Assembly: GCA_025351345.1 (NCBI GenBank)
Contig: JANXWB010000065.1
Location: forward strand, 1-34,416
DNA length: 34,416 nt
Direction of reading: 5' to 3'
From: Synechococcales cyanobacterium GL140_1_metabat_312
GTDB lineage: Bacteria; Cyanobacteriota; Cyanobacteriia; Leptolyngbyales; Leptolyngbyaceae
Positions 19,433 through 32,576 of the stretch are shown in pieces. A program made the position numbers and the translations under genes. The notes under the pieces are model-generated. The model ran no database searches. It saw only the letters and a program-made list of their open reading frames with translations, and had not been told where the DNA came from. Each line of letters begins with the position of its first letter. Within the stretch, counting starts at the first letter, position 1.

Positions 19433-21175
19433 TTATGGCTCTTGAACCAAGGCAGCAAACGATTCATACACTTGGGCTAACGCTTGACGCTGATCATTAC
19501 CAGACTGACTAAATTCAGACAAGCTACTGGTAATAAATTCAACACGTCCCTTGAGATCTGTGAGGTTATCTTGGAAGGGCTGAAGCATTTCGTCATAAAG
19601 CGCGAGTTTTGACTGACTGTTAGCTAACAGAACCCTCTTATCTTGCAAGGTTTCGTCTTGAGCTAAGAGGGCTTGGTGCTGGGGCATTAAGTCTTGTTCC
19701 TGTTGAGTTACCATGCCTTGAGTCTGCTCGATGGAACTGTGAATTTGCGCAATCTGGGTCTCAATTTGGACCAACTCTTCCGATCGTTGCTGACGGAAGC
19801 TATCAATTTGAGCGAAGACTGGACCTAAGTTGAGTCCATTTTCAGACGCATGGGGATCAGGTTTACCTTGACGACGAGCCACAACAGTTTGGTGCTGACG
19901 TAGAACGCTTTCCTTTTCCCGCACGCTACGACGTTGACCCACTAAGGTCTCATTCAAGAATTGGTAGGCATCCCGTTCATCGGTTAGTTCATTCTCCAGG
20001 TTCAACCGATCGAAATGATTGGCTTGAGACACACGATGTTCGAGTTCATCGATTTCTTTTTGCTTCAGTTCCAGTTCCTCCTCTTGATTTGAGACAAAAT
20101 CTGAAGATCGCTTAAAGTCACTGGAAATATCACTAATCAGACTTTGGAGCGCTTCGATATTCATGGCTTCTAGAGCCGCTACATCCACTTGTCCCGCAAT
20201 GTTCACATCATCAAGTCCTTCCGTCATCCGGTAAAGCTGCTGATGAATTTCTTCATGGTGCTGCAATTGTAGTGTCAACGCTTGAGCGTAGTCGTGCTTA
20301 GCTTGAACCATGGACTGTTGAACCTGTAGCTCAGCTTTGGCTTTTTCTAGGCCATCTGAAGCATCGCGCCATTGTTGCCACTGAATCTGATGAGTTTTAG
20401 TGCTTTCATCCAGTTCAATTTGTTGGGCTTCAAGCTGCGATCGGTACTCACCCACTCGGTCCCAATGGATCTGAAGCTGAGACTGCTGTTGACCAATCAC
20501 CTGTTGAGCAAAGCCAGTCTGTTCTTGAACCGTGTCCAGGGATACGATCGCGCCCTCAACCCGGTTTAGCAATCCATTAATATGTTGAGCCTTTTCCGTA
20601 TCCAGCACCGTCCCCTGCTGAATCTCTGCTTTACGATCCTCCAGCCGATTCATCTCGCCCCTAAGCTGATCCCACGCCCCTTCAAGCTCTTTCTTTTGAC
20701 GATCGAATTCTTCCTTTTGCCCCTCGACTTCAGTGCGGACCTGTTCAAACTGCTCGCGCTGGGACTCCATTTGTTCCGCATCGCTTTCCATTTGCTCAAG
20801 CTGCTCTCGCCGCGCCTCCATCTCCATTTCACGACGATTCAGCTCTTGACTTTGATAGGTCAGAGACTGTTTCCACTGCTCAATTTCTTCTTCTTGGGTC
20901 TTAAATTTCTCTTGTAGTCGCGAGAAAGTTTGCAGGATGCTCACTAAAGGCCGTCCGGCTTCCTGAATCCTTTGCACCTGACGACTAGTGGTCAAGTCAG
21001 CCAGTAATAGTGTTCCGGCTGCATAACGACTCGCTTCGTCCGCCGGGACCGTTTCTTCCCCCGTTACGGCAGTCCAGTTCTGCTCGGTTCGCTGACAAGC
21101 CAAGAGTTTTAACTCGGTCTTGCTGCCCCCCATCAGACCGCTTTTTTTTTGAATGACTTCTGCCAAATAAAGCAC
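19433..21175 (-). CDS. hmpF: Pilus motility/taxis protein HmpF
   Basis: Cyanobacterium-specific coiled-coil protein required for type IV pilus-driven motility. In Nostoc hormogonia it localises to the cell poles under control of the Hmp chemosensory system. It is 580 aa. A small N-terminal globular region opens MLYLAEVIQKKSGLMGGSKT, with LKLLACQRTEQNWTAV and DEASRYAAGTLLLADL (about residues 1-85). The rest is almost continuous Gln/Glu-rich coiled coil (about 88-560) with few prolines and no membrane segment. It is divergent from the chemosensory operon across 304 bp, which fits a shared role and possibly shared control. Confidence 0.9.
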   Translation of the reverse strand: MLYLAEVIQKKSGLMGGSKTELKLLACQRTEQNWTAVTGEETVPADEASRYAAGTLLLADLTTSRQVQRIQEAGRPLVSILQTFSRLQEKFKTQEEEIEQWKQSLTYQSQELNRREMEMEARREQLEQMESDAEQMESQREQFEQVRTEVEGQKEEFDRQKKELEGAWDQLRGEMNRLEDRKAEIQQGTVLDTEKAQHINGLLNRVEGAIVSLDTVQEQTGFAQQVIGQQQSQLQIHWDRVGEYRSQLEAQQIELDESTKTHQIQWQQWRDASDGLEKAKAELQVQQSMVQAKHDYAQALTLQLQHHEEIHQQLYRMTEGLDDVNIAGQVDVAALEAMNIEALQSLISDISSDFKRSSDFVSNQEEELELKQKEIDELEHRVSQANHFDRLNLENELTDERDAYQFLNETLVGQRRSVREKESVLRQHQTVVARRQGKPDPHASENGLNLGPVFAQIDSFRQQRSEELVQIETQIAQIHSSIEQTQGMVTQQEQDLMPQHQALLAQDETLQDKRVLLANSQSKLALYDEMLQPFQDNLTDLKGRVEFITSSLSEFSQSGNDQRQALAQVYESFAALVQEP

Positions 21176-21479: not shown

Positions 21480-22691
21480 ATGCAGGGAGAACTAACTGAA
21501 ATTGATATTCGCAGCATTCTCCAATTGGTTGAACTGGGACAGCGGACAGGACAACTTTTGGTGGAGACCTATGCTTGCCCAACGGATCGCACCGACGATC
21601 GGACTTGGTATGTCTTTTTTCTAAATGGTCAGGTGGTGTATGCAGGTAATCCGGCAGCAGGTCTATCTCGATTACGGGGATTTCTGGCATCCTACGGCTT
21701 AGAAAAAGACTTTCAGCGGATTACCACCATGCCCGACTCGGTCGCCAATGCGCCAGAATATGGTGCGCTGTGGCAGCTTTTAGAAAATCGGGTCATTACG
21801 ACAACTCAGGCGAAAGAAATTCTTCAAGGGATGATTCAAGAAACTCTGTTTGACTTGCTCAGTTTACGGCAGGGCTATTTTATATTTGAGATGGGCGCGC
21901 CCTTAACCCCACAACTTGTGACGCTGCCCGTGATGCCGATCGTGGCTACCACGCTTCAGCAGGTTCAAGAGTGGAAGCAGTGGTATCCTCAGGTTCATTC
22001 GCCAGAGCAAATCCCGTTGATTGTTGATGCTGAGGCACTTCAAAGCGCACTTCCAACAGGCACGGTTAAAACCTTACTCAGTTTTGTAGATGGCCAAGCG
22101 TCCCTGCGTCAAATTGCCCGTGGCCTAAATCGAGACGTGTTGGCGGTGACTCGTGCCCTGCATCCCTGTATTCAACGAGGTTGGATCCAGTTTCTTGAGG
22201 ACGATCGGACTCGAACCAGTCGCTGGAATTATTCAGCCAGCACCCCACGTCCGATGCCCTGTGTGGCTTGTCTTGATGATGCAGCAACCGTACGTCACAG
22301 TGTGGAAAATATTTTGGAACGCCATGGCTATAGATCCGTGGTGCTGGATCACCCTGTAACGGCCTTGAGTCAGTTTTTTACTCATAAGCCAGACCTGATC
22401 CTTTGCGACATCACCATGCCTGAGCTAGATGGGTATGAAGTCTGTGCCATGTTGCGTCAGTCTAGTTATTTCCGACAGACCCCCATTGTCATGCTCACTG
22501 GATTGGATGGCTTTATCGATCGGGTGCGGGCACAGATGGTTGGAGCAACCGACTATCTAGCTAAACCTTTTGGTGAAGAAGAACTGGTGACAATTGTCGA
22601 GAAATATGTTGGATTGGGACAAATTGAGAGTTCCAAATCGTCTGAATCTACAGAAATAGCTTCAAAAGAAGAACCCTGGCCTGAAATTTAG
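21480..22691 (+). CDS. PatA/PixG-type response regulator (HmpA/PilG-like)
   Basis: Output or branching regulator of the chemosensory system. It is 403 aa. The N-terminal PATAN/DUF4388-like region opens MQGELTEIDIRSILQLVELG, with TGQLLVE and WYVFFLNGQVVYAG. A helical middle segment (LLSFVDGQASLRQIARGL) follows, then a C-terminal receiver domain with D266-D267, phosphoacceptor D310 in LILCDITMPELDGYE and K362 in YLAKPF. The layout matches PatA/PixG proteins that open the pix and tax3 loci of Synechocystis and the hmp locus of Nostoc. Such proteins act on pilus motors or cell polarity rather than DNA. AGGGTGG lies just before the ATG, after a leader hairpin. Confidence 0.9.
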   Translation: MQGELTEIDIRSILQLVELGQRTGQLLVETYACPTDRTDDRTWYVFFLNGQVVYAGNPAAGLSRLRGFLASYGLEKDFQRITTMPDSVANAPEYGALWQLLENRVITTTQAKEILQGMIQETLFDLLSLRQGYFIFEMGAPLTPQLVTLPVMPIVATTLQQVQEWKQWYPQVHSPEQIPLIVDAEALQSALPTGTVKTLLSFVDGQASLRQIARGLNRDVLAVTRALHPCIQRGWIQFLEDDRTRTSRWNYSASTPRPMPCVACLDDAATVRHSVENILERHGYRSVVLDHPVTALSQFFTHKPDLILCDITMPELDGYEVCAMLRQSSYFRQTPIVMLTGLDGFIDRVRAQMVGATDYLAKPFGEEELVTIVEKYVGLGQIESSKSSESTEIASKEEPWPEI

Positions 22692-22897
22692 TCTCTATTC
22701 CTGGTCCTTAAAGCAGTTGCATTATCAAATACAACGGCTCTCCATAGGTGTAATTAATCGAGATAAGGCTGAAATCTCCACTTTTCTATACGGGAAGTCT
22801 GTTTATTTTGACGATTGAGGGTACCTTATTACTACACCCCGGTTTTACGATTGGTCGATGGGTTGGGAGTGCGGTCGCCAAATTTAGGCAGAGGGTT

Positions 22898-23263
22898 ATG
22901 AGTACAGTTTTGGTGGTCGAAGACAGTGTGACTCAACGGGAGATGATTACAGACTTGCTCAAGGGAAGTGGCTTGAGCGTGTCCATCGCAACCGATGGAG
23001 TTGAGGCATTGGAACACATTGAAGGACATCGTCCTGATCTGGTGGTCTTAGATATTGTGATGCCTCGGATGAATGGATATGAGGTCTGTCGTCGAATTAA
23101 GGCGGATCCTAAAACTCAACATGTTCCGGTCGTGATGTGTTCTTCAAAAGGTGAAGAATTCGATCGGTATTGGGGCATGAAGCAGGGGGCCGATGCGTAT
23201 ATCGCCAAGCCATTCCAGCCGACTGAGCTAGTGGGAACCGTGAAGCAGTTACTACGAGGTTAG
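22898..23263 (+). CDS. hmpB: CheY-like single-domain response regulator (HmpB/PilH-like)
   Basis: A stand-alone receiver domain of 121 aa with no output module. The acidic pair is E8-D9 (LVVEDS), the phosphoacceptor D52 (VVLDIVMPRMNGYEV), the switch Ser is in MCSSK and the conserved lysine is K104 (YIAKPF). It probably takes phosphate from the CheA hybrid downstream and acts at the pilus machinery or as a phosphate sink. The frame opens earlier at 22808, but GAGGG at 22891-22895 ahead of the ATG and the family N-terminus fix the start. The cheW-like gene follows after 11 nt. Confidence 0.9.
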   Translation: MSTVLVVEDSVTQREMITDLLKGSGLSVSIATDGVEALEHIEGHRPDLVVLDIVMPRMNGYEVCRRIKADPKTQHVPVVMCSSKGEEFDRYWGMKQGADAYIAKPFQPTELVGTVKQLLRG

Positions 23264-23274
23264 AGAGTGAAGTT

Positions 23275-23802
23275 ATGGTAGGAATGCCTGATTTTTTAAC
23301 AGGGCGTGGCCAAGACCAAGCCCCTGAGTTTCAGGAGTTGGAAAGCCCAGAAGGTGAGCTACATCTGCGCTTTTATGTGTCATCTGGAGAAGAGTTCGCC
23401 TTACCTGCAACCGGAATTAGGGAGGTTCTGTCTCCCGTTCCCGATCGGATTACTCCTGTGCCCAATGTTTCACCCCTACTCCTTGGAACCTTGAATGTTC
23501 GAGGTCGTGTCGTTTGGGTAGCAGATTTAGGACAGTTTCTTGGGGACTCAACCCCCTTGAACACCGATCGTCAGGAAATTTCCGTGATTGCTGTCGAAGA
23601 TCAAGACATTTTATTGGGCTTGGCTGTCGATCGGATTGTGGGAATGGAATGGCTGGACATTGAAAAAATACAAGCCCCAACCACCGTCTCTGACGGTGTC
23701 GCACCCTTTCTGCGCGGGGAGTGGGTTATGGGAGAAGATCGGCGTTTTTTGCGTCTCTTAGACCAAATTTCAATTCTTCGATCGGCTAGATGGGCGGCTT
23801 AA
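23275..23802 (+). CDS. hmpC: CheW-like scaffold protein (HmpC/PilI-like)
   Basis: Adaptor that couples the receptor to CheA in the signalling array. It is 175 aa with a single CheW domain: LRFYVSSGEEFALPATGIREVL, VPNVSPLLLGTLNVRGRVVWVADLG-type residues split across two strands, then ISVIAVEDQDILLGLAVDRIVG. The conserved glycine-bearing NVRG turn is present. An acidic N-terminal extension of about 25 residues precedes the domain. ATG at 23275 follows GAGAG; an ATG at 23284 is also possible. It lies 11 nt after the cheY-like gene. Confidence 0.9.
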   Translation: MVGMPDFLTGRGQDQAPEFQELESPEGELHLRFYVSSGEEFALPATGIREVLSPVPDRITPVPNVSPLLLGTLNVRGRVVWVADLGQFLGDSTPLNTDRQEISVIAVEDQDILLGLAVDRIVGMEWLDIEKIQAPTTVSDGVAPFLRGEWVMGEDRRFLRLLDQISILRSARWAA

Positions 23803-24059: not shown

Positions 24060-26918
24060 ATGACCCGCAGCACTGATTTTGCACAGGAATATCAACAGGC
24101 AGAAAAAGCCTACATGCAGGGACGCTACGACGAGGCAGCGGAAGTTGTCGATCGTCTAGTTGTAGACCATCCTCAAGATCCCAATGCACGGTTGTTGCGG
24201 GGACACATCTATTGCTATGGGCTTCAGCGCTACGACGTTGCCCAAGAACAATACCAAGAAGTCCTAGGGTTAACCCAAGATCCAGAATATGTAGACTACG
24301 CCAATAGTGGACTGACCTATGCCCGTCAATTTGCCGCAGACATAGACCATAACGGCTTAAGTGGTGACTCAGACTCAGGATCCTTGAATCGTGAGGATTA
24401 CGGTACAGTTTGGCAATCTGCTGATGACGCCTCCGATTCGTTCGTTCTGGTCGATATGGATATTGAAGATGACAATTCTATTGGATTTCCAATGGACACA
24501 CCCAATCTGTTCGATTCCTCGACCAATGGCACCACTAAAACGGCCACCAGTCAATCCACCATGACTAGCATAATGGATGATTTGGTTGAAGATGATTTTC
24601 AAGGAATAGGTGAGGCTCCTTCACCCCTGAATGATCCCTTTGCGATGCCGTCCAATGATCCCTTTGCAATACCCAATGTCGCGACCTCTACTCCTTCTGG
24701 AGGATCTGAAAGTCCTTTTTCTGGGGATGATGGATTCATGGAAATGGCTTGGGATGACTCCGATGATGGGGATGTCTTTAGCGATTTTAATGATGCTTCT
24801 GTATCAGGCGCCGATTTAACAGGCTCTAGCTCTAGTATCAAGAAGGTCGGTAATAAAGGCGAAGACACGTCGTCACAGGGTCCAAATTCCAGCGTAAGTG
24901 AGCCTATTGCACCCGCATTTCCCACCACAAATTCACCTTTCCAGGAGATGAACGATCGCTGGGGACCTGATACGGACCCTGTCGAGGAAACCATGTTTAT
25001 GTCTGGCAATGAGTTTGGCTCCGAAGGTGGAGGGCCTGACTTCATGTCGTCGCCTTCGTCGAATTATTCACAAAATGCGACTAACAGGTTCACCCCCGCA
25101 CCCACTCAGGGGAATACAATAGATTTCATCGATGATTTTGATGAATTTGATGATTTAGGAAATCTTGCTGATTTCGACATGTCTGAGGATTCTGCTGGAT
25201 TTACCAGCCCATCGGTGGGGGGAGCATTTTCGATGGCAGGTGGGGCAGCGGCGGTGGCCTATGGTCGAGATTCGATCGGTACGTCAGGGTTTGGTCTCAC
25301 GGCAGATCGATCGGAGGATTCAGGCTTCACGTCTAGTTCGATTCCTGATGATGATGACTTTGGTCTCTCAGATAGTGCGAATGAGTCGATGCCGACGTTT
25401 ACGCAAGTAGATAATCAGCACGTTGATAGTACTCCGACCATTGAGCAAGGATTTTTTGCACCCTTAGAAAACGCTTCGTTTGCCGGAAAACAGCTTGCGG
25501 TTGCGGTTGCAGCGGGGGTAGCCTCTGCGTTAGCGGTTGCACTGGTTAGCTTCATGACGGCTAATACAGTTAATCTTGCAAATGCGTCTCCAGCGGAAAA
25601 AGAAGTCCAAGAAAAAGTCGTTGGTCACCTTCGGGGCAACAGTCTTTGGATGGCCTTGGCTGGAATGGTGGGCGGTGGGGGCGCGGCCTACGGGATTGGC
25701 CAGCTCACGACTCGTCATATGAAGCGATCGACCACTGACCTGAAAAAACAATTTGATGCCGTGTGTGGCGGTAACTTGGGCGTGCGATCGACGGTCCACG
25801 CTGAAGATGAACTCGGTGAACTATCAGCCGGCTTTAACCAAATGGCCCGAGTCATTCTAGCCACAACAAGTGAGGCTCAACGTAAAGCTGAAGAGCAAGA
25901 GCAAGCTAAAGAAGACTTGCAGCGCCAAGTGATTCGGTTGCTGGACGATGTAGAAGGAGCCGCCCGAGGTGACTTGACGGTACAAGCCGAAGTAACCGCC
26001 GATGTACTTGGTGCCGTGGCAGATTCCTTCAACTTAACCATTCAAAACCTCCGAGAAATTGTCCAACAGGTGAAGCTTGCCACTCGTCAGGTGAGCAAAG
26101 GATCGACTGAGAACGAAATGTTTGCTCGCGGCCTTTCGTCTGATGCGTTGCGTCAAGCCGAAGAATTGGCCGTAACGCTAAATTCGGTTCAGATGATGAC
26201 TGAATCGATTCACCGGGTGGCCGACAGCGCCCGTGAGGCTGAAGAAGTGGCTAAACAAGCAACAGCAACGGCTCAGAAGGGAGGAGAAGCGGTTGAACGC
26301 ACGGTGGCCGGGATTCTTGAAATCCGCGAAACCGTTGCAGAAACTACCCGTAAGGTGAAGCGATTAGCTGAATCTTCTCAGGAAATTTCTAAGATTGTGG
26401 CCTTGATTTCTCAGATCGCGTCACGGACCAACTTGTTAGCTTTGAACGCTAGTATCGAAGCAGCCCGTGCGGGTGAAGCCGGACGTGGATTCGCTATTGT
26501 GGCAGATGAAGTTCGACAGTTGGCCGATCGGGCGGCTAAGGCATCCAAGGAAATTGAACAAATTGTCTTGCAGATTCAAAGCGAAACTGGATCTGTGATG
26601 ACCGCCATGGAAGAAGGGACGCAGCAGGTGATTGAGGGAACTCGGTTGGCCGAACAAGCTAAACGAAGTCTTGATGACATCATTCAGGTGTCCAATCGGA
26701 TTAATACCCTGGTACAGTCCATCACCTCGGATACCGTTGAGCAAACCGAAACCTCGCGTGCGGTGGCCCAGGTCATGCAGTCCGTTGAGTTGACGGCCCA
26801 AGAGACCTCTCAAGAGGCCCAGCGCGTGTCGGCATCCCTTCAAAACCTGGTGGGAGTTGCCCGTGACTTGCTGACTTCCGTGGAGCGTTTTCGGGTAGAT
26901 GCTGTCGATCGGAATTAG
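24060..26918 (+). CDS. hmpD: Methyl-accepting chemotaxis protein with TPR-like N-terminus (HmpD/PilJ-like)
   Basis: Receptor of the pilus chemosensory system, 952 aa. Residues 7-95 look like TPR helices ([40 protein letters not shown]). About 96-470 is Asp/Ser/Gly/Phe-rich and presumably disordered, with a repeated NDPFA motif and a Gly/Ala island near 386-402. Two transmembrane helices follow (about 478-501 and 529-549) with only about 27 residues between them. HAMP-like segments lie near 550-600 and 620-675, then the signalling domain with [40 protein letters not shown] and helical bundles to about 940. Signal input is probably cytoplasmic or intramembrane. AGGAGGAGG precedes the ATG. Homologues are PilJ of Synechocystis tax3 and HmpD of Nostoc. 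Confidence 0.92.
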
Positions 26919-27088
26919 AACGATTGCACTTCATCTATGATGGATTTAGTCCGTCCAAATGTCATAGAGTTGTGAGATTTTTTTCCGTTCTCAAGGGTTT
27001 GCGATACATTGGCGATACAGAGGGAGTAGATTCACAGCAAAAGCGAATTAATGCTTTTCGCTAGAGTTTATTTTTCGTTAGATTCCTT

Positions 27089-27116
27089 GGGTTTGTTTCG
27101 ATTTTTGACCAAACCC
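27089..27116 (+). promoter_or_regulatory. Hairpin in the leader of the CheA-hybrid gene
   Basis: GGGTTTG (27089-27095) and CAAACCC (27110-27116) are perfect complements around a 14-nt T-rich loop, 33 nt before the start codon, in a 231-bp gap. A second structure, AAAAGC/GCTTTT, lies upstream near 27040-27058. Either could influence read-through from the receptor gene or translation; there is no U-run after the 27089 stem. Confidence 0.4.
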
Positions 27117-27149
27117 TTTCAAGCATGATTAACAGACAGGGATAAACCT

Positions 27150-30100
27150 ATGCAGCCGGAACAACAACAGCGAATCATGGGCTACTTTATTGAGGAAGCA
27201 AAGGACCACCTCAATACAATTGAACAGGGATTGTTGAATCTGCAAGGAACCCTCGACGATTCTGAGATGGCCAACGAACTCTTTCGGGCCGCCCATTCAG
27301 TCAAAGGTGGGGCGGCGATGTTGGGGCTTGGGGGCATTCAGCAGACTTCTCATAAATTAGAAGATTATTTTAAAATTCTGAAAGAGACTCCAAGCATTCG
27401 GGTCGATCAAAAGCTAGAAACTCTTCTTCTTCAGGTTTTTGATACGCTTAACGGTCTTTTAGAACAACTTCAGACTCCATTTGGTTTGACGGAAGAGGTT
27501 AATCAATCTGCTTTGCGGGATGCGAATCCTGTGTTTGCTCAAGTGGATCAGCATTTACAAGCGATGATCGCATCAGCTAATCCCACATTGGTGGGCCGAT
27601 CGACGTCGCCATCCTCTCGTTCACTGGTATTCCAAGAGCAAGTCCCGGCCAAATTGCGAGAAATGCTGGATCTCTTCAAACAGATCGATACCAATCCATC
27701 CCTACGATCGAATCTTCAACGGGTTTGTGCGGATTTGAGAGGATTTGGCGAGACATTTGCCTTAACCAATTGGATTTCACTTTTGGAGTTGACAGAACGG
27801 GCAGTTTTGAATCCTGAGAATTCTGGGCGAGTTTTAGCGGGAATTACGCTGAAGGATTTGAAGCAGGCCCAGGCACAGATCTTATCTGATCAAGATAGTG
27901 CGATCGCGGCAAGTGATGCATTAGTTGCATTAGCTCCGCTTTCGGCAGAACCACTTGTGAGCGATAGTGATGATGATTTCTCAAGTCTCTTTGATGGTGA
28001 TGATTTAGAATCCGATCTTGGCTTTGACTCAGATGCATCAGATTTATTGGATCTGGGTTCGCTTGAATCTGATGACTTTGATTTATTTGCAGATACGGAT
28101 CTCTCGGCTGCATCCAGTATTGATGGTTTGGAGCTAGACGGTTTGCAACTAGATGATTTTGGTCTAGGGGATTTCGGTCTACCTACAGGTGATTTCGATG
28201 CAAGTCTAAATACCTTAGATAATCTGGGCGGGATAGACGATTTAGAGACCTTGGATGATTTCCAGGGGCTGGGAGATCTCGATAAGCTGGATTTTGGGGA
28301 TTTGCAAGACGATGATTTAGGATTAGGAATTTTAGAGGCTGAGCAAGATCAATTAGAAATTTCCTCTCAAGGGACTTCTGCTACTGAGGCATCCTTTAGA
28401 GATCTGATGATGTTTGGGGATTCTGGACCCGAAATGGGCCTAGCTGAACTCAATAGCTTGGCTGATTTATTTGAAGGCGAGGTACCGGATCTGTCTTCGA
28501 CTTGGCAAGTTGAAGAGGAGATTAATAATTCGACTGAATTGTCTTTGGATGATTTGGGATTGCAGGCAGATTCTCGTTCCGATCGGACCTTGAGTTCAGA
28601 TTCAATGTCTGATGATGCCCTTAATGATTTATTTGGTAGTGCGTTGGTAGATGATGCACCCACGCCGTTGAATTTTGATTTTGATTTATCAGATGATGAT
28701 TCTTTACTTGGAGACTCCTTAGATCTAGAGCATTTAGGTTTAGATGATTTAGGTTTGGATACTCCAGAAGATTTGGATCGAGATACCTCATCGTCATTTA
28801 GTGACCTAGGTGACTTGTTTGGGGAATTAGATGAGGCAGATCTACAATTTGATCCGTCTTTGGATGCTGGACCTGAGCCTATACAAGAATTAGAACTTGA
28901 GGGCTTTAAGTTCGATGACGATAACGACAATGATGATAGCTTTAGCAGTCTCTTTATAGATGAAGACTCGGCTCTTGCTTCCTCGGCATCCACCGTCAGT
29001 GATTTAGGTGAAATGGATTCGTTGTTTGGCGATGTCCCTTACAATTTAGATGTCCCTGTTGCTTCTGCCTCAGACACGATGAGTTTGGACAGCAATGACT
29101 TCAGCGGTTTGGAAGATGGTTCGGCGTTACTGGATCTGACGGACCAGGATGCAGAGAGTGATATTTTCTTCGGAATGGACGAACCGATCTTATTGGATTC
29201 TCTGGAGAGCGAAACAGAAATGCAGTTTGATCCAAATCTGAATTTTGGATCTACCGATGATCTAAATAATGATTGGATATTGCCAGAAACTGACTTAGAT
29301 TTAGATTCTGACTTGGATTTAAGTTCTGACCTAGGTTTAGATTCTGATTTAGATTCCGACTTAGGTTTAGATTTGGATTCTGACTTAGATTTAAGCTCTG
29401 ACTTAGATTTAGGTCTAGATTCTGATCTAGATTTAGGGTCTGAACTTAGCGATTCATTTGATAGTAATTTTGATTTTGGACAGGGCTTAGTCTTAGATAA
29501 TTTTTCATCTGATGCATTGGCCTTTGATGATTTGTTGGATGAAGATGATTTGTTGGACGAAAACGTCTCCTTGGACGCATTTGGTTTAGACATCGCGGAA
29601 ACTTCTGAACTAGATTTAGACATAGTTGAAGATGATGTTTGGGGCGATGTAGAACCCTTGTCTAGTGATGCTGACGGATCAAATGATCTATTTGGAATGG
29701 CCGCGATCGGGATTGGTGGCGTCGGCGCAATGGGTGTTGTAAGTGCAATGCAAAATCCCACTTCAACGGATTCGGACGTTGTATTAGATAGTGTGAGTTC
29801 TGATGATGTCTGGGACGATGACCTCTGGGGAGATACATCCTTAGAAATGCCTTCTAGCAATATTGCTTCTAGTACGATCGAGCTAGAGAATTTATCTGAA
29901 TCCGATGATCTTTCAGAATTAGAGATTCGTGGAGATGATATGAATCTAGATGACATGAATCTAGATGACATGAGCTTGGAATCCAGTGGTGTAGATGACA
30001 TGAGCTTAGATGACATGAGCTTAGATGATATCGATTTAGGTGAAGTGAACCTGGATCAGATAGATTTAGGTGAAATGAACTTAGATAGTGAATTTACTTC

Positions 30101-32525
30101 AATGTCTCTTGATTCTAATGATGATATTTGGGGTGAAACCGATAGTAATTTAGGATCCGATTTTGATGATCTAGATTCGCTTTTGGGAGACTCAGATAAT
30201 GGGTTTGGATTAGATTCTATTGGATTTGAAGAATCTGAGGATAATCTCGCGGCAGCTGATGATGGTTCATTCTCTGACCTTGACGATTTTTTATCCTTCG
30301 ATCAATCGTCCTCATCGGATCTAGGCTTTGCCGGAATGGATGATTTTACCGGAGCCGCTTTTCTAGGAACTGGACTTGTGGCAGGCGGAGCGATCGCAGC
30401 CAATGTAGCCAATGCATTTGGGTCTCAGTTTGATGATGATCCCGAGTTTGGTGATCTTGAAAAGCTGCTTGAAGACCGAGATCTCGGCAGCAGTAGTGTA
30501 CCTATTGTTCCCGGTGCTGTTCGTCCTGTTGGTGCTACTCGTCGTCCTGCTGCTGCCCGTCCTAGCAAAGGCTTGGGCGAACAAACCATGCGAGTTCCGG
30601 TCAAGCATCTCGACAATCTCAGCAATCTTGTGGGGGAATTGGTCGTTAACCGAAATAGTCTTGAACAAGATCAAGAACGGATGCGTCAGTCCCTCGACAA
30701 TCTGCTTTATCAAGTGCAGCAACTGAGCGATGTCGGCCAACGAATGCAGGACTTGTATGAACGATCGCTGCTTGAAAGTTCGCTCTTGGCCAGCCGTCAA
30801 AGCTACCGAATGGCGAGCAGTGCCCCTCGTACAATCGTTGAACTTGAGAAAACTAACGACGTTGAATACGACCCGTTGGAAATGGATCGCTTTACAGGTT
30901 TCCATTCGCTTTCTCAAGAGATGATCGAATTGATTGTCCGAGTGCGGGAATCTGCATCAGATATTGAATTTATCGTTGACGAAACCGACCAAGTAACGCG
31001 GATGTTCCGTCAAGTCACGACGCAGCTTCAAGAAGGGCTGACTCGATCGCGCATGGTGCCCTTTGCCCAAACCGCCGATCGGATGCCCCGTGCGGTACGA
31101 GATATTGCCATGAAATGCGGTAAGCAAGCGGAATTGGTGATTGAGGGCCGTGAAACGCCTATTGATAAAATGCTTCTAGAGCATCTATATGATCCAATGA
31201 CCCATTTGGTAAACAATGCCATTACCCACGGAATTGAAACGCCAGAAGAACGTCGTCGCGCTGGGAAATCTGACACTGGACGCATCACCATCCGGGCTTT
31301 TTATCAAGGAAACCAAACCGTTATTTCCGTATCTGATGATGGTGCGGGCATCGACATTGAACGGGTCAAAGTTAAAGCGATCGAAAAAGGCTTAATCAGT
31401 GCCGCAGAATCTCAAACCATGAGTCGTTTGGATGTCTATGATTTACTGTTCCATCCTGGTTTCACCACTCGTGACCAAGCCGATGATTTCGCGGGCCGGG
31501 GCGTGGGGATGGATGTTGTTCGCACCAGTTTGAGTGAAATTCGTGGATCTGTTACCACCGATTCCACCCTCAATCGGGGTACGACCTTTACCGTTCGTCT
31601 ACCGTTGACGTTAAGTATTTCCAAAGCTCTATGTTGTGTCAGCGATCGTGCGCGAATTGCCTTCCCGATGGATGGGGTGGAAGACATGTTAGACATGCCA
31701 AAAGATCGTCTATTGACCAATGCTGAAGGTCAACCTTATATTCGTTGGCGCGATTCTGAGTTGGTGCTGCGTCCACTCACCGAACTCCTAGCTCACAATC
31801 GTCACCTCGGACGAGGAAACGTCTACGGCGGCAATCAAGAAGAAGATATGATTTCTGTCGTTGTCCTGCGGAGTGTGGGGAACTACTTAGCCTTACAAGT
31901 CGATCAGGTGATTGGTGAACAGGAAATTGTAATTAAGCAACTTGAAGGCCCAGTGCCCAAACCTGTTGGGATTGCCGGAGCGACGGTTCTAGGGGATGGC
32001 CGAATCATGCCGATCGCCGATGTGCTGGAGCTAATCGATCTTTCCATGGGTCATATCCGACGGGATGCGGGCAGCATGTGGGATCAAAATGCGCTGCCAC
32101 CTCAGGAAATACAGCCTGCCAAGACTGAACCGATGGTCCTTATTGTGGACGATTCCATTACGGTTCGAGAATTGCTATCCATGACCTTCAATAAAGTCGG
32201 TTATCGGGTTGAGCAAGCCCGTGATGGTCAAGAAGCCTGGGAAAAACTACGGGCTGGACTTCCCTGCGATATTGTCTTCTGCGACATTGAGATGCCTCGT
32301 ATGGACGGACTCGAACTGCTCTCACGGATTCAGAAGGATCCCGTACTCAAGGCTCTCCCGATCGCAATGTTAACTTCACGCGGTGCCGATCGTCACCGTC
32401 AAATGGCTTCATCTCTTGGGGCAAGCGGGTATTTCACGAAGCCTTATCTAGAGGAAGCGCTGCTGGATGCCGCAGGTCGAATGTTGAAGGGGGAAGTACT
32501 TTTGGCGAACGACCGATCGGAATAA
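27150..32525 (+). CDS. hmpE: Hybrid CheA histidine kinase / response regulator with a giant acidic linker (HmpE/PilL-like)
   Basis: Central kinase of the chemosensory array, 1791 aa. The N-terminal HPt domain has H49 (FRAAHSVKGGAAMLGL). Residues about 268-1105 form a huge Asp/Leu/Ser-rich, presumably disordered linker with D-L-D tandem repeats (715-764; 929-980) and two Gly/Ala hydrophobic islands (about 846-867 and 1068-1091). The CheA core follows: dimerisation helices from about 1141 (MRVPVKHLDNLSNLVGELVV), ATPase N-box HLVNNAITHGIE, DDGAGID and GRGVGMDVV, then a CheW-like domain (about 1485-1640). A C-terminal receiver carries D1712 (VFCDIEMPRMDGLELL). It would phosphorylate itself and the upstream receivers. 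The gene is intact, unlike the split tax3 CheA of Synechocystis. A bidirectional terminator follows. Confidence 0.93.
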   Translation: MQPEQQQRIMGYFIEEAKDHLNTIEQGLLNLQGTLDDSEMANELFRAAHSVKGGAAMLGLGGIQQTSHKLEDYFKILKETPSIRVDQKLETLLLQVFDTLNGLLEQLQTPFGLTEEVNQSALRDANPVFAQVDQHLQAMIASANPTLVGRSTSPSSRSLVFQEQVPAKLREMLDLFKQIDTNPSLRSNLQRVCADLRGFGETFALTNWISLLELTERAVLNPENSGRVLAGITLKDLKQAQAQILSDQDSAIAASDALVALAPLSAEPLVSDSDDDFSSLFDGDDLESDLGFDSDASDLLDLGSLESDDFDLFADTDLSAASSIDGLELDGLQLDDFGLGDFGLPTGDFDASLNTLDNLGGIDDLETLDDFQGLGDLDKLDFGDLQDDDLGLGILEAEQDQLEISSQGTSATEASFRDLMMFGDSGPEMGLAELNSLADLFEGEVPDLSSTWQVEEEINNSTELSLDDLGLQADSRSDRTLSSDSMSDDALNDLFGSALVDDAPTPLNFDFDLSDDDSLLGDSLDLEHLGLDDLGLDTPEDLDRDTSSSFSDLGDLFGELDEADLQFDPSLDAGPEPIQELELEGFKFDDDNDNDDSFSSLFIDEDSALASSASTVSDLGEMDSLFGDVPYNLDVPVASASDTMSLDSNDFSGLEDGSALLDLTDQDAESDIFFGMDEPILLDSLESETEMQFDPNLNFGSTDDLNNDWILPETDLDLDSDLDLSSDLGLDSDLDSDLGLDLDSDLDLSSDLDLGLDSDLDLGSELSDSFDSNFDFGQGLVLDNFSSDALAFDDLLDEDDLLDENVSLDAFGLDIAETSELDLDIVEDDVWGDVEPLSSDADGSNDLFGMAAIGIGGVGAMGVVSAMQNPTSTDSDVVLDSVSSDDVWDDDLWGDTSLEMPSSNIASSTIELENLSESDDLSELEIRGDDMNLDDMNLDDMSLESSGVDDMSLDDMSLDDIDLGEVNLDQIDLGEMNLDSEFTSMSLDSNDDIWGETDSNLGSDFDDLDSLLGDSDNGFGLDSIGFEESEDNLAAADDGSFSDLDDFLSFDQSSSSDLGFAGMDDFTGAAFLGTGLVAGGAIAANVANAFGSQFDDDPEFGDLEKLLEDRDLGSSSVPIVPGAVRPVGATRRPAAARPSKGLGEQTMRVPVKHLDNLSNLVGELVVNRNSLEQDQERMRQSLDNLLYQVQQLSDVGQRMQDLYERSLLESSLLASRQSYRMASSAPRTIVELEKTNDVEYDPLEMDRFTGFHSLSQEMIELIVRVRESASDIEFIVDETDQVTRMFRQVTTQLQEGLTRSRMVPFAQTADRMPRAVRDIAMKCGKQAELVIEGRETPIDKMLLEHLYDPMTHLVNNAITHGIETPEERRRAGKSDTGRITIRAFYQGNQTVISVSDDGAGIDIERVKVKAIEKGLISAAESQTMSRLDVYDLLFHPGFTTRDQADDFAGRGVGMDVVRTSLSEIRGSVTTDSTLNRGTTFTVRLPLTLSISKALCCVSDRARIAFPMDGVEDMLDMPKDRLLTNAEGQPYIRWRDSELVLRPLTELLAHNRHLGRGNVYGGNQEEDMISVVVLRSVGNYLALQVDQVIGEQEIVIKQLEGPVPKPVGIAGATVLGDGRIMPIADVLELIDLSMGHIRRDAGSMWDQNALPPQEIQPAKTEPMVLIVDDSITVRELLSMTFNKVGYRVEQARDGQEAWEKLRAGLPCDIVFCDIEMPRMDGLELLSRIQKDPVLKALPIAMLTSRGADRHRQMASSLGASGYFTKPYLEEALLDAAGRMLKGEVLLANDRSE
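29292..29440 (+). repeat. Asp-Leu coding tandem repeat in the CheA-hybrid linker
   Basis: GAC/GAT-TTA-GAT-TTA-GAT-TCT style units recur here, encoding about 50 residues of alternating D, L and S (for example DSDLDLSSDLGLDSDLDSDL). Units of 6 and 12-18 nt recur with synonymous changes. A second tract at 29934-30089 encodes repeated LDDM(N/S) units. This looks like slippage-driven expansion under selection for acidic composition. Confidence 0.8.
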
Positions 32526-32538
32526 GTAGCCGCTCTAT

Positions 32539-32576
32539 GTAGATCGGCAATAAAAAAGTAGATCGGCAATAAAAAA
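32539..32576 (+). repeat. Perfect 19-nt tandem duplication
   Basis: GTAGATCGGCAATAAAAAA occurs twice in direct tandem (32539-32557 and 32558-32576). It sits between the CheA-hybrid stop codon and the shared terminator, and the A-run of the second copy forms the left flank of the terminator stem. Confidence 0.85.

What the first reader, a model, noticed from the sequence alone, without database searches (positions are those of the whole stretch)
24345..30450. Receptor and CheA of one array share giant acidic, Gly/Ala-punctuated disordered segments
The receptor (about residues 96-470) and the CheA hybrid (about 268-1105) both carry very long Asp/Ser-rich segments. Both are broken by short Gly/Ala hydrophobic islands: [16 protein letters not shown] in the receptor; MAAIGIGGVGAMGVVSAM and GAAFLGTGLVAGGAIAANVA in CheA. 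Similar composition in two interacting proteins suggests a shared job, such as co-condensation, polar clustering or membrane docking, beyond a passive linker. The composition is seen; the role is inferred.
Basis: partly seen in the sequence, partly recalled or inferred. Interest (0 to 1): 0.6.

Follow-up and report, generated by a model that had tools for sequence, protein, structure and literature searches.

The report
Motif-bearing acidic tails in pilus kinase
Two signalling proteins that control cyanobacterial pilus movement carry very long, strongly negative floppy segments; the eye-catching glycine/alanine patches in them come and go between species, but short helical motifs hidden in the same segments are as strictly preserved as the enzyme core, so the segments look like docking scaffolds rather than plain string.

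Summary
In an Alkalinema-like cyanobacterium, an Hmp/Pil-type (Tax3-type) operon encodes a TPR-IDR-TM-HAMP receptor (952 aa) and a CheA-REC hybrid (1791 aa). Receptor residues ~101-467 (net charge -61) and CheA ~266-1113 (net -239) are predicted disordered and contain the three Gly/Ala islands at the stated places.

The islands are not the functional signature. Across about 100 orthologous loci they occur in 21/107 CheAs and 6/97 receptors. They arose patchily and show no tree-corrected co-occurrence between the two proteins. They are not predicted helical. Within clades that have them, CheA islands evolve more slowly than the rest of the linker.

What is conserved is short motifs. In CheA these are GPExGxAELNSLADLFEG (74/94 fused CheAs) and 1-5 copies of FxDLExLL just before the dimerisation domain (47/47 in the first set, against 0.01 expected). 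A basic patch follows. In the receptor they are ETLFM and [15 protein letters not shown]. Motif pN/pS is 0.03-0.04, like the kinase core; linker background is 0.28-0.38. Where CheA is naturally split, its C-terminal half keeps the FxDLExLL tail in 9/13 loci although that tail no longer links anything to a phosphotransfer domain.

Best reading: docking-motif scaffolds. Binding partners are inferred.

The parts
24060..24344 (+). receptor N-terminal TPR-like helical domain (residues 1-95)
   Evidence: AF2 pLDDT ~96; weak TPR_16 match below the curated cut-off
24345..25469 (+). receptor acidic disordered segment (residues 96-470), cytoplasmic, between TPR and TM1
   Evidence: pLDDT ~32 over 101-467; D+E 19%, K+R 2.4%; present in orthologues, median 364 aa
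24987..25001 (+). receptor motif ETMFM (consensus ETLFM)
   Evidence: conserved; 64/82 receptors of fused-CheA loci against 2/13 of split-CheA loci
25119..25217 (+). receptor motif [33 protein letters not shown]
   Evidence: conserved in 58 orthologues; motif pN/pS 0.04 against 0.28 in the surrounding segment; only short helix in the disordered segment (361-365)
25218..25265 (+). receptor Gly/Ala island [16 protein letters not shown], directly after the SPSV motif
   Evidence: islands in only 6/97 receptors
25434..25484 (+). juxtamembrane motif [17 protein letters not shown] (consensus VEQGxLAFLENAP)
27150..27944 (+). CheA Hpt (9-107) plus second helical domain (~155-265, no HxxKG motif seen by eye)
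   Evidence: Pfam Hpt; AF2 pLDDT 85-91; Foldseek hits to CheA P1; second domain has no NCBIfam match and no significant PDB sequence match
27945..30488 (+). CheA giant acidic disordered linker (residues 266-1113)
   Evidence: pLDDT ~30-38; net charge -239; 18 paralogous CheAs in the same family have a median linker of ~110 aa
28425..28487 (+). CheA motif 1 GPEMGLAELNSLADLFEGEVP (426-446)
   Evidence: helix 432-438 in AF2; 74/94 fused, 1/13 split; no second copy in the genome
29697..29750 (+). CheA Gly/Ala island 1 MAAIGIGGVGAMGVVSAM (850-867)
   Evidence: shared only with Alkalinema relatives L009/L010; not helical in AF2
30162..30185 (+). FxDLExLL copy 1: FDDLDSLL (1005-1012)
30270..30293 (+). 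FxDLExLL copy 2: FSDLDDFL (1041-1048)
30351..30410 (+). CheA Gly/Ala island 2 GAAFLGTGLVAGGAIAANVA (1068-1087), between copies 2 and 3
   Evidence: no other copy in the genome
30447..30470 (+). FxDLExLL copy 3: FGDLEKLL (1100-1107)
   Evidence: 47/47 orthologues have the motif in the 90 aa before P3, 0.01 expected; helix 1101-1108 in AF2
30489..30578 (+). basic patch SSSVPIVPGAVRPVGATRRPAAARPSKGLG (1114-1143) just before P3
   Evidence: net +5 here; positive in 102/106 orthologues not classed as split; paralogues median -4; R1132 and R1137 invariant
30579..32522 (+). CheA P3-P4-P5-REC core (1144-1791)
   Evidence: Pfam; 71-98% identical in 80 named relatives

Best explanation
The two acidic segments are lineage-wide disordered arms of the Hmp/Pil (Tax3)-type type IV pilus chemotaxis-like system. 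They keep flanking modules (the Hpt pair in CheA, the TPR in the receptor) on a long, self-repelling tether and present a few short, strictly conserved amphipathic motifs as docking sites. In CheA, an LNSLADLF motif and a cluster of 1-5 FxDLExLL motifs sit beside a basic patch at the entrance to the dimerisation domain. I propose that this juxta-P3 cluster captures the phosphotransfer module and/or the PATAN response regulator near the kinase core. In the receptor, ETLFM and [15 protein letters not shown] would dock a partner of the array or pilus motor. The Gly/Ala islands are young, clade-specific insertions next to such motifs, constrained locally where they exist but not needed by the system. 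Shown: disorder prediction, charge, motif conservation and placement, absence from paralogues, retention in split CheA, patchy islands. Inferred: docking as the role, and which proteins dock.
For: Motif pN/pS is 0.03 (CheA) and 0.04 (receptor), matching the kinase core (0.05) and MCP core (0.02); linker background is 0.38 and 0.28. FxDLExLL lies in the last 90 aa before P3 in 47/47 orthologues (0.01 expected), with nearly all copies within 150 aa of P3, and within 130 aa in 89/94 fused CheAs. 18 paralogous CheAs lack a clear FxDLExLL cluster. AF2 gives helices inside the linker only at 432-438 and 1101-1108, and in the receptor segment only at 361-365. In split CheAs the pre-P3 region is a free N-terminal tail, yet 9/13 keep FxDLExLL. 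In Synechocystis, where CheA is split into Hik36/PilL-N and Hik43/PilL-C, removing 360 N-terminal residues of Hik43 (DIM included) abolished two-hybrid binding to Hik36 and to Rre6/PilG, while a C-terminal deletion kept both (PMC7656254). A basic patch at P3 is conserved.
Against: No partner was tested, and the published deletion also removes the dimerisation domain, so it does not isolate the motif. At least one fused orthologue (L176) has almost no linker (26 aa) and no FxDLExLL match, so the linker can be lost. Correlated loss of CheA motif 1 and receptor motifs is significant by Fisher test but not in independent tree pairs. Motifs were found by conservation, so their low pN/pS is partly circular. 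AF2 used shallow alignments of 41 and 22 sequences.
Confidence: 0.55

Rival explanations
1. Passive, charge-stiffened spacer: the segments are entropic tethers that only need to be long, soluble and non-sticky. The conserved motifs are minor or structural caps.
For: Length and sequence vary widely (26-1809 aa, median 906); linker background evolves fast (pN/pS 0.38); near-total loss of K/R keeps the chain extended.
Against: Motifs within the segments are as constrained as the enzyme core, sit at fixed places relative to P3, and persist where the segment is not a linker.
Confidence: 0.25
2. Co-condensation or polar clustering through the shared acidic, Gly/Ala-punctuated segments.
For: Both segments are long, disordered and low-complexity; CheA islands, where present, evolve more slowly than random linker windows (0.0015 of 2000 draws); Hmp controls polar HmpF localisation (PMC9239167).
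Against: Islands are absent from most orthologues and not correlated between partners; both segments are strongly negative and should repel without a basic partner; composition differs in Leu.
Confidence: 0.1
3. Gly/Ala islands dock the segments to the membrane as short Gly-zipper-like hairpins.
For: Uncharged 16-21 residue stretches with GxxxG-like spacing; hydropathy 0.97-1.8.
Against: Insertion energies are positive and AF2 gives no helix; absent from most orthologues.
Confidence: 0.05
4. Islands are neutral repeat-slippage products in a permissive linker (this concerns the islands alone and can hold together with the docking or the spacer model).
For: Tandem expansion seen, e.g. GVVSAM x3 in L010 and GGAALA repeats in receptors L015/L017/L022; patchy gain or loss (8 changes on the tree for CheA, 5 for the receptor).
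Against: pN of CheA islands is below random linker windows, so some are retained by selection or by composition.
Confidence: 0.4

Closest known systems
Hmp system of Nostoc punctiforme (HmpA-E) and Pil/Tax3 system of Synechocystis (PilG, PilH, PilI, PilJ, PilL-N/PilL-C)
   Same: Gene order PATAN-REC, CheY, CheW, MCP, CheA-REC; no photoreceptor domain in the MCP; single best orthologue in most genomes that have it
   Different: Nothing at system level; this is an ordinary orthologue with fused CheA. The motif-bearing acidic segments were not found described in the papers reached
Split CheA, PilL-N (Hik36) and PilL-C (Hik43)
   Same: C-terminal piece keeps a short acidic tail with FxDLExLL, basic patch, P3-P5-REC (seen in unnamed split-CheA genomes here)
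   Different: Here Hpt and kinase are one chain joined by about 850 residues; this genome also has a separate Hpt-Hpt2 protein (L187)
CheA P2 docking domain and P1-P2-P3 linkers of E. coli (own knowledge)
   Same: Flexible region between Hpt and P3 that brings substrate close
   Different: No folded P2 here; instead a giant acidic chain with short helical motifs

Membership tests
Hmp/Pil (Tax3)-type chemotaxis-like system | operon PATAN-type RR, CheY-like RR, CheW, MCP, CheA-REC | tested here: met
   DUF4388+REC, REC, CheW, HAMP+MCPsignal, Hpt...REC in order on one strand
Hmp/Pil (Tax3)-type chemotaxis-like system | MCP without GAF photoreceptor domain | tested here: met
   only TPR, HAMP and MCPsignal matched
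Hmp/Pil (Tax3)-type chemotaxis-like system | control of type IV pili | not testable with these tools
   from literature on relatives (PMC12288463, PMC9239167)
Conserved giant acidic linker with FxDLExLL | present in orthologous fused CheAs | tested here: met
   89/94 have the motif; median linker 906 aa
Conserved giant acidic linker with FxDLExLL | absent from paralogous CheAs | tested here: met
   18 paralogues, no clear FxDLExLL cluster (two loose matches)
Conserved Gly/Ala island element | islands conserved in orthologues of both proteins | tested here: not met
   21/107 CheA, 6/97 receptor
Phase-separating scaffold | condensate formation | not testable with these tools
   no experiment possible

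The most novel reading that the evidence does not exclude
The Hmp/Pil kinase and receptor carry an unreported code of short docking motifs in acidic disordered arms. A juxta-P3 cluster of FxDLExLL helices beside a basic patch acts as a CheA-specific docking site for the phosphotransfer module or PATAN regulator. That would explain how CheA can be cut into two genes in some lineages and still work.
Probability: 0.3. Interest if true: 0.62.

Novelty: new variant of a known kind. Interest (0 to 1): 0.42.

Why it matters
[quoted passage not shown] Strictly conserved short motifs in otherwise fast-evolving acidic arms of both its kinase and its receptor give small, testable targets for the missing docking steps. 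They also offer a reason why CheA can exist as two separate genes in Synechocystis-like species. The result also shows that visually striking islands can mislead while the constrained parts look inconspicuous.

Tried and rejected
Islands as a conserved shared module: rejected. Correlated presence of islands in the two proteins: Fisher p 0.003 but no support from independent tree pairs. A first version of this test mislabelled some TM helices as islands and was redone. CheA motif 1 with receptor motifs as coevolving partners: Fisher p about 1e-5, tree pairs inconclusive. Motifs or islands as a genome-wide element: motif 1, the receptor motif and island 2 have no second copy in the genome. DNA-pattern hits for FxDLExLL outside CheA that could be read in frame did not lie in comparable acidic segments. 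Library searches for disorder or condensates in CheA or chemoreceptors gave nothing relevant. Foldseek on the CheA model gave CheA P1 domains for the Hpt, with E-values just above 0.001.

Full report
The finding concerns two adjacent genes of a chemotaxis-like operon. The order is PATAN-type (DUF4388) response regulator 21480-22691, CheY-like 22808-23263, CheW 23275-23802, receptor 24060-26918, CheA-REC hybrid 27150-32525. The nearest named relatives are Alkalinema-like MAGs. This is the Hmp (Nostoc) / Pil-Tax3 (Synechocystis) arrangement, which the literature treats as one class controlling type IV pili (PMC12288463; PMC9239167).

Observation. The acidic segments and the three islands are exactly where stated. 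AlphaFold2 gives very low confidence over receptor 101-467 and CheA 266-1150, while the TPR and Hpt domains in the same models score about 85-97. The CheA linker has 28.7% D+E and 1.0% K+R (net -239); the receptor segment has 19.0% and 2.4% (net -61). They differ strongly in Leu (16.4% against 3.0%). Islands are unusual against shuffles when scored by G+A density (3/5000 and 37/5000) but not by simple count (about 20% of shuffles).

Islands in relatives. 80 named loci and about 40 phylum-wide loci were compared. With one uniform definition, islands occur in 21 of 107 CheAs and 6 of 97 receptors, with 8 and 5 changes on the kinase tree. Both proteins carry one in 4 loci, CheA only in 13, the receptor only in 1, neither in 77, and independent tree pairs give no association. 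Even the closest relative L009 (98% identical kinase core) falls below the receptor threshold. In CheA several islands grow directly out of the end of a motif such as DFEALLG or NDLFG, and in the receptor the window's island follows [10 protein letters not shown]. Where CheA islands exist they change less than random linker windows (pN 0.112 against 0.195, 0.0015 of draws), so they are not simply junk, but they are not a system-wide part.

Conserved motifs. Alignment of 55 CheAs and 58 receptors shows short, sharply conserved stretches inside the disordered parts. In CheA these are GPExGxAELNSLADLFEGE (426-446) and EFxDLExLLE (1099-1108). In the receptor they are ETLFM (310-314), [21 protein letters not shown] (354-386), DDExFSI (430-436) and VEQGxLAFLENAP (459-475). 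FxDLExLL occurs 1-5 times per linker, nearly always within 150 residues of P3, in 47/47 orthologues against 0.01 expected. The window has three copies (1005, 1041, 1100). Synonymous change at motifs is normal while amino-acid change is almost nil: pN/pS 0.03 in CheA motifs and 0.04 in receptor motifs, against 0.38 and 0.28 for the rest of the segments. AF2 forms helices within the segments only at 432-438 and 1101-1108 of CheA and 361-365 of the receptor. A basic patch just before P3 (net +5; R1132 and R1137 invariant) follows the acidic arm and is absent in paralogues. 18 paralogous CheAs of the same family have short linkers and no clear FxDLExLL cluster.

A natural experiment. 98 of 291 sampled phylum genomes have the orthologue, with open frames from 815 to 2721 aa. 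In 13 loci studied CheA is split: a C-terminal piece with a 124-654 residue leader, and a separate Hpt-Hpt2 protein of about 300 aa elsewhere in the genome. There the pre-P3 region links nothing to an Hpt, yet 9/13 keep FxDLExLL; motif 1 (1/13) and the receptor DEFDD motif (0/13, against 67/82) are lost. The split is one event on the tree, so this association cannot be separated from ancestry. In Synechocystis the equivalent Hik43 lacking 360 N-terminal residues no longer binds Hik36 or Rre6 in two-hybrid assays, while a C-terminal deletion does (PMC7656254). This fits docking at the tail or P3, but the deletion includes the dimerisation domain.

Mechanism. Best supported is a motif-bearing docking arm: a long, self-repelling tether whose few conserved amphipathic motifs, clustered at P3 next to a basic patch, capture partners. 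Shown: predicted disorder, charge, conservation, placement, specificity to this CheA class, persistence without tethering. Inferred: docking itself and the partner identity. A pure spacer is less likely because of the motif constraint. Condensation or membrane docking through the islands is unlikely because the islands are dispensable and the arms repel each other.

Limits. Genomes from the phylum scan are unnamed. Motif pN/pS is partly circular because motifs were found by conservation. AF2 alignments were shallow. One fused orthologue (L176) has nearly lost the linker, so it is not indispensable everywhere. The library search covers open papers only, and the 2025 review reached contains no mention of disorder in these proteins, so 'unreported' is provisional.

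Noticed in passing
L187 (contig C5 of the same genome), minus strand, 350 aa frame: A stand-alone Hpt plus second-helical-domain protein, 43% identical to CheA 4-266, coexists with the fused CheA; it resembles PilL-N of split systems.
   Followed up: partly
27612-27962: Second helical domain of CheA (about 155-265) is confidently folded in AF2 but has no NCBIfam match, no Pfam match in the full protein and no significant PDB sequence match, and lacks the phosphorylatable HxxKG motif.
   Followed up: partly
28367-28993 and 29039-30016, minus strand: Long antisense open frames (208 and 325 aa) lie opposite the repetitive Asp/Ser/Leu linker; most likely a by-product of its codon make-up.
   Followed up: no
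32539-32576: Perfect 19-base direct repeat (GTAGATCGGCAATAAAAAA x2) directly after the CheA stop codon.
   Followed up: no
L028: This orthologue's CheA linker contains many near-identical repeats (e.g. ELDLDLDNLLDSETEVE...TPATNDDLLLTFDDA), showing recent tandem expansion of the acidic arm.
   Followed up: no
19433-21175, minus strand: 580 aa open frame next to the operon without any Pfam match.
   Followed up: no
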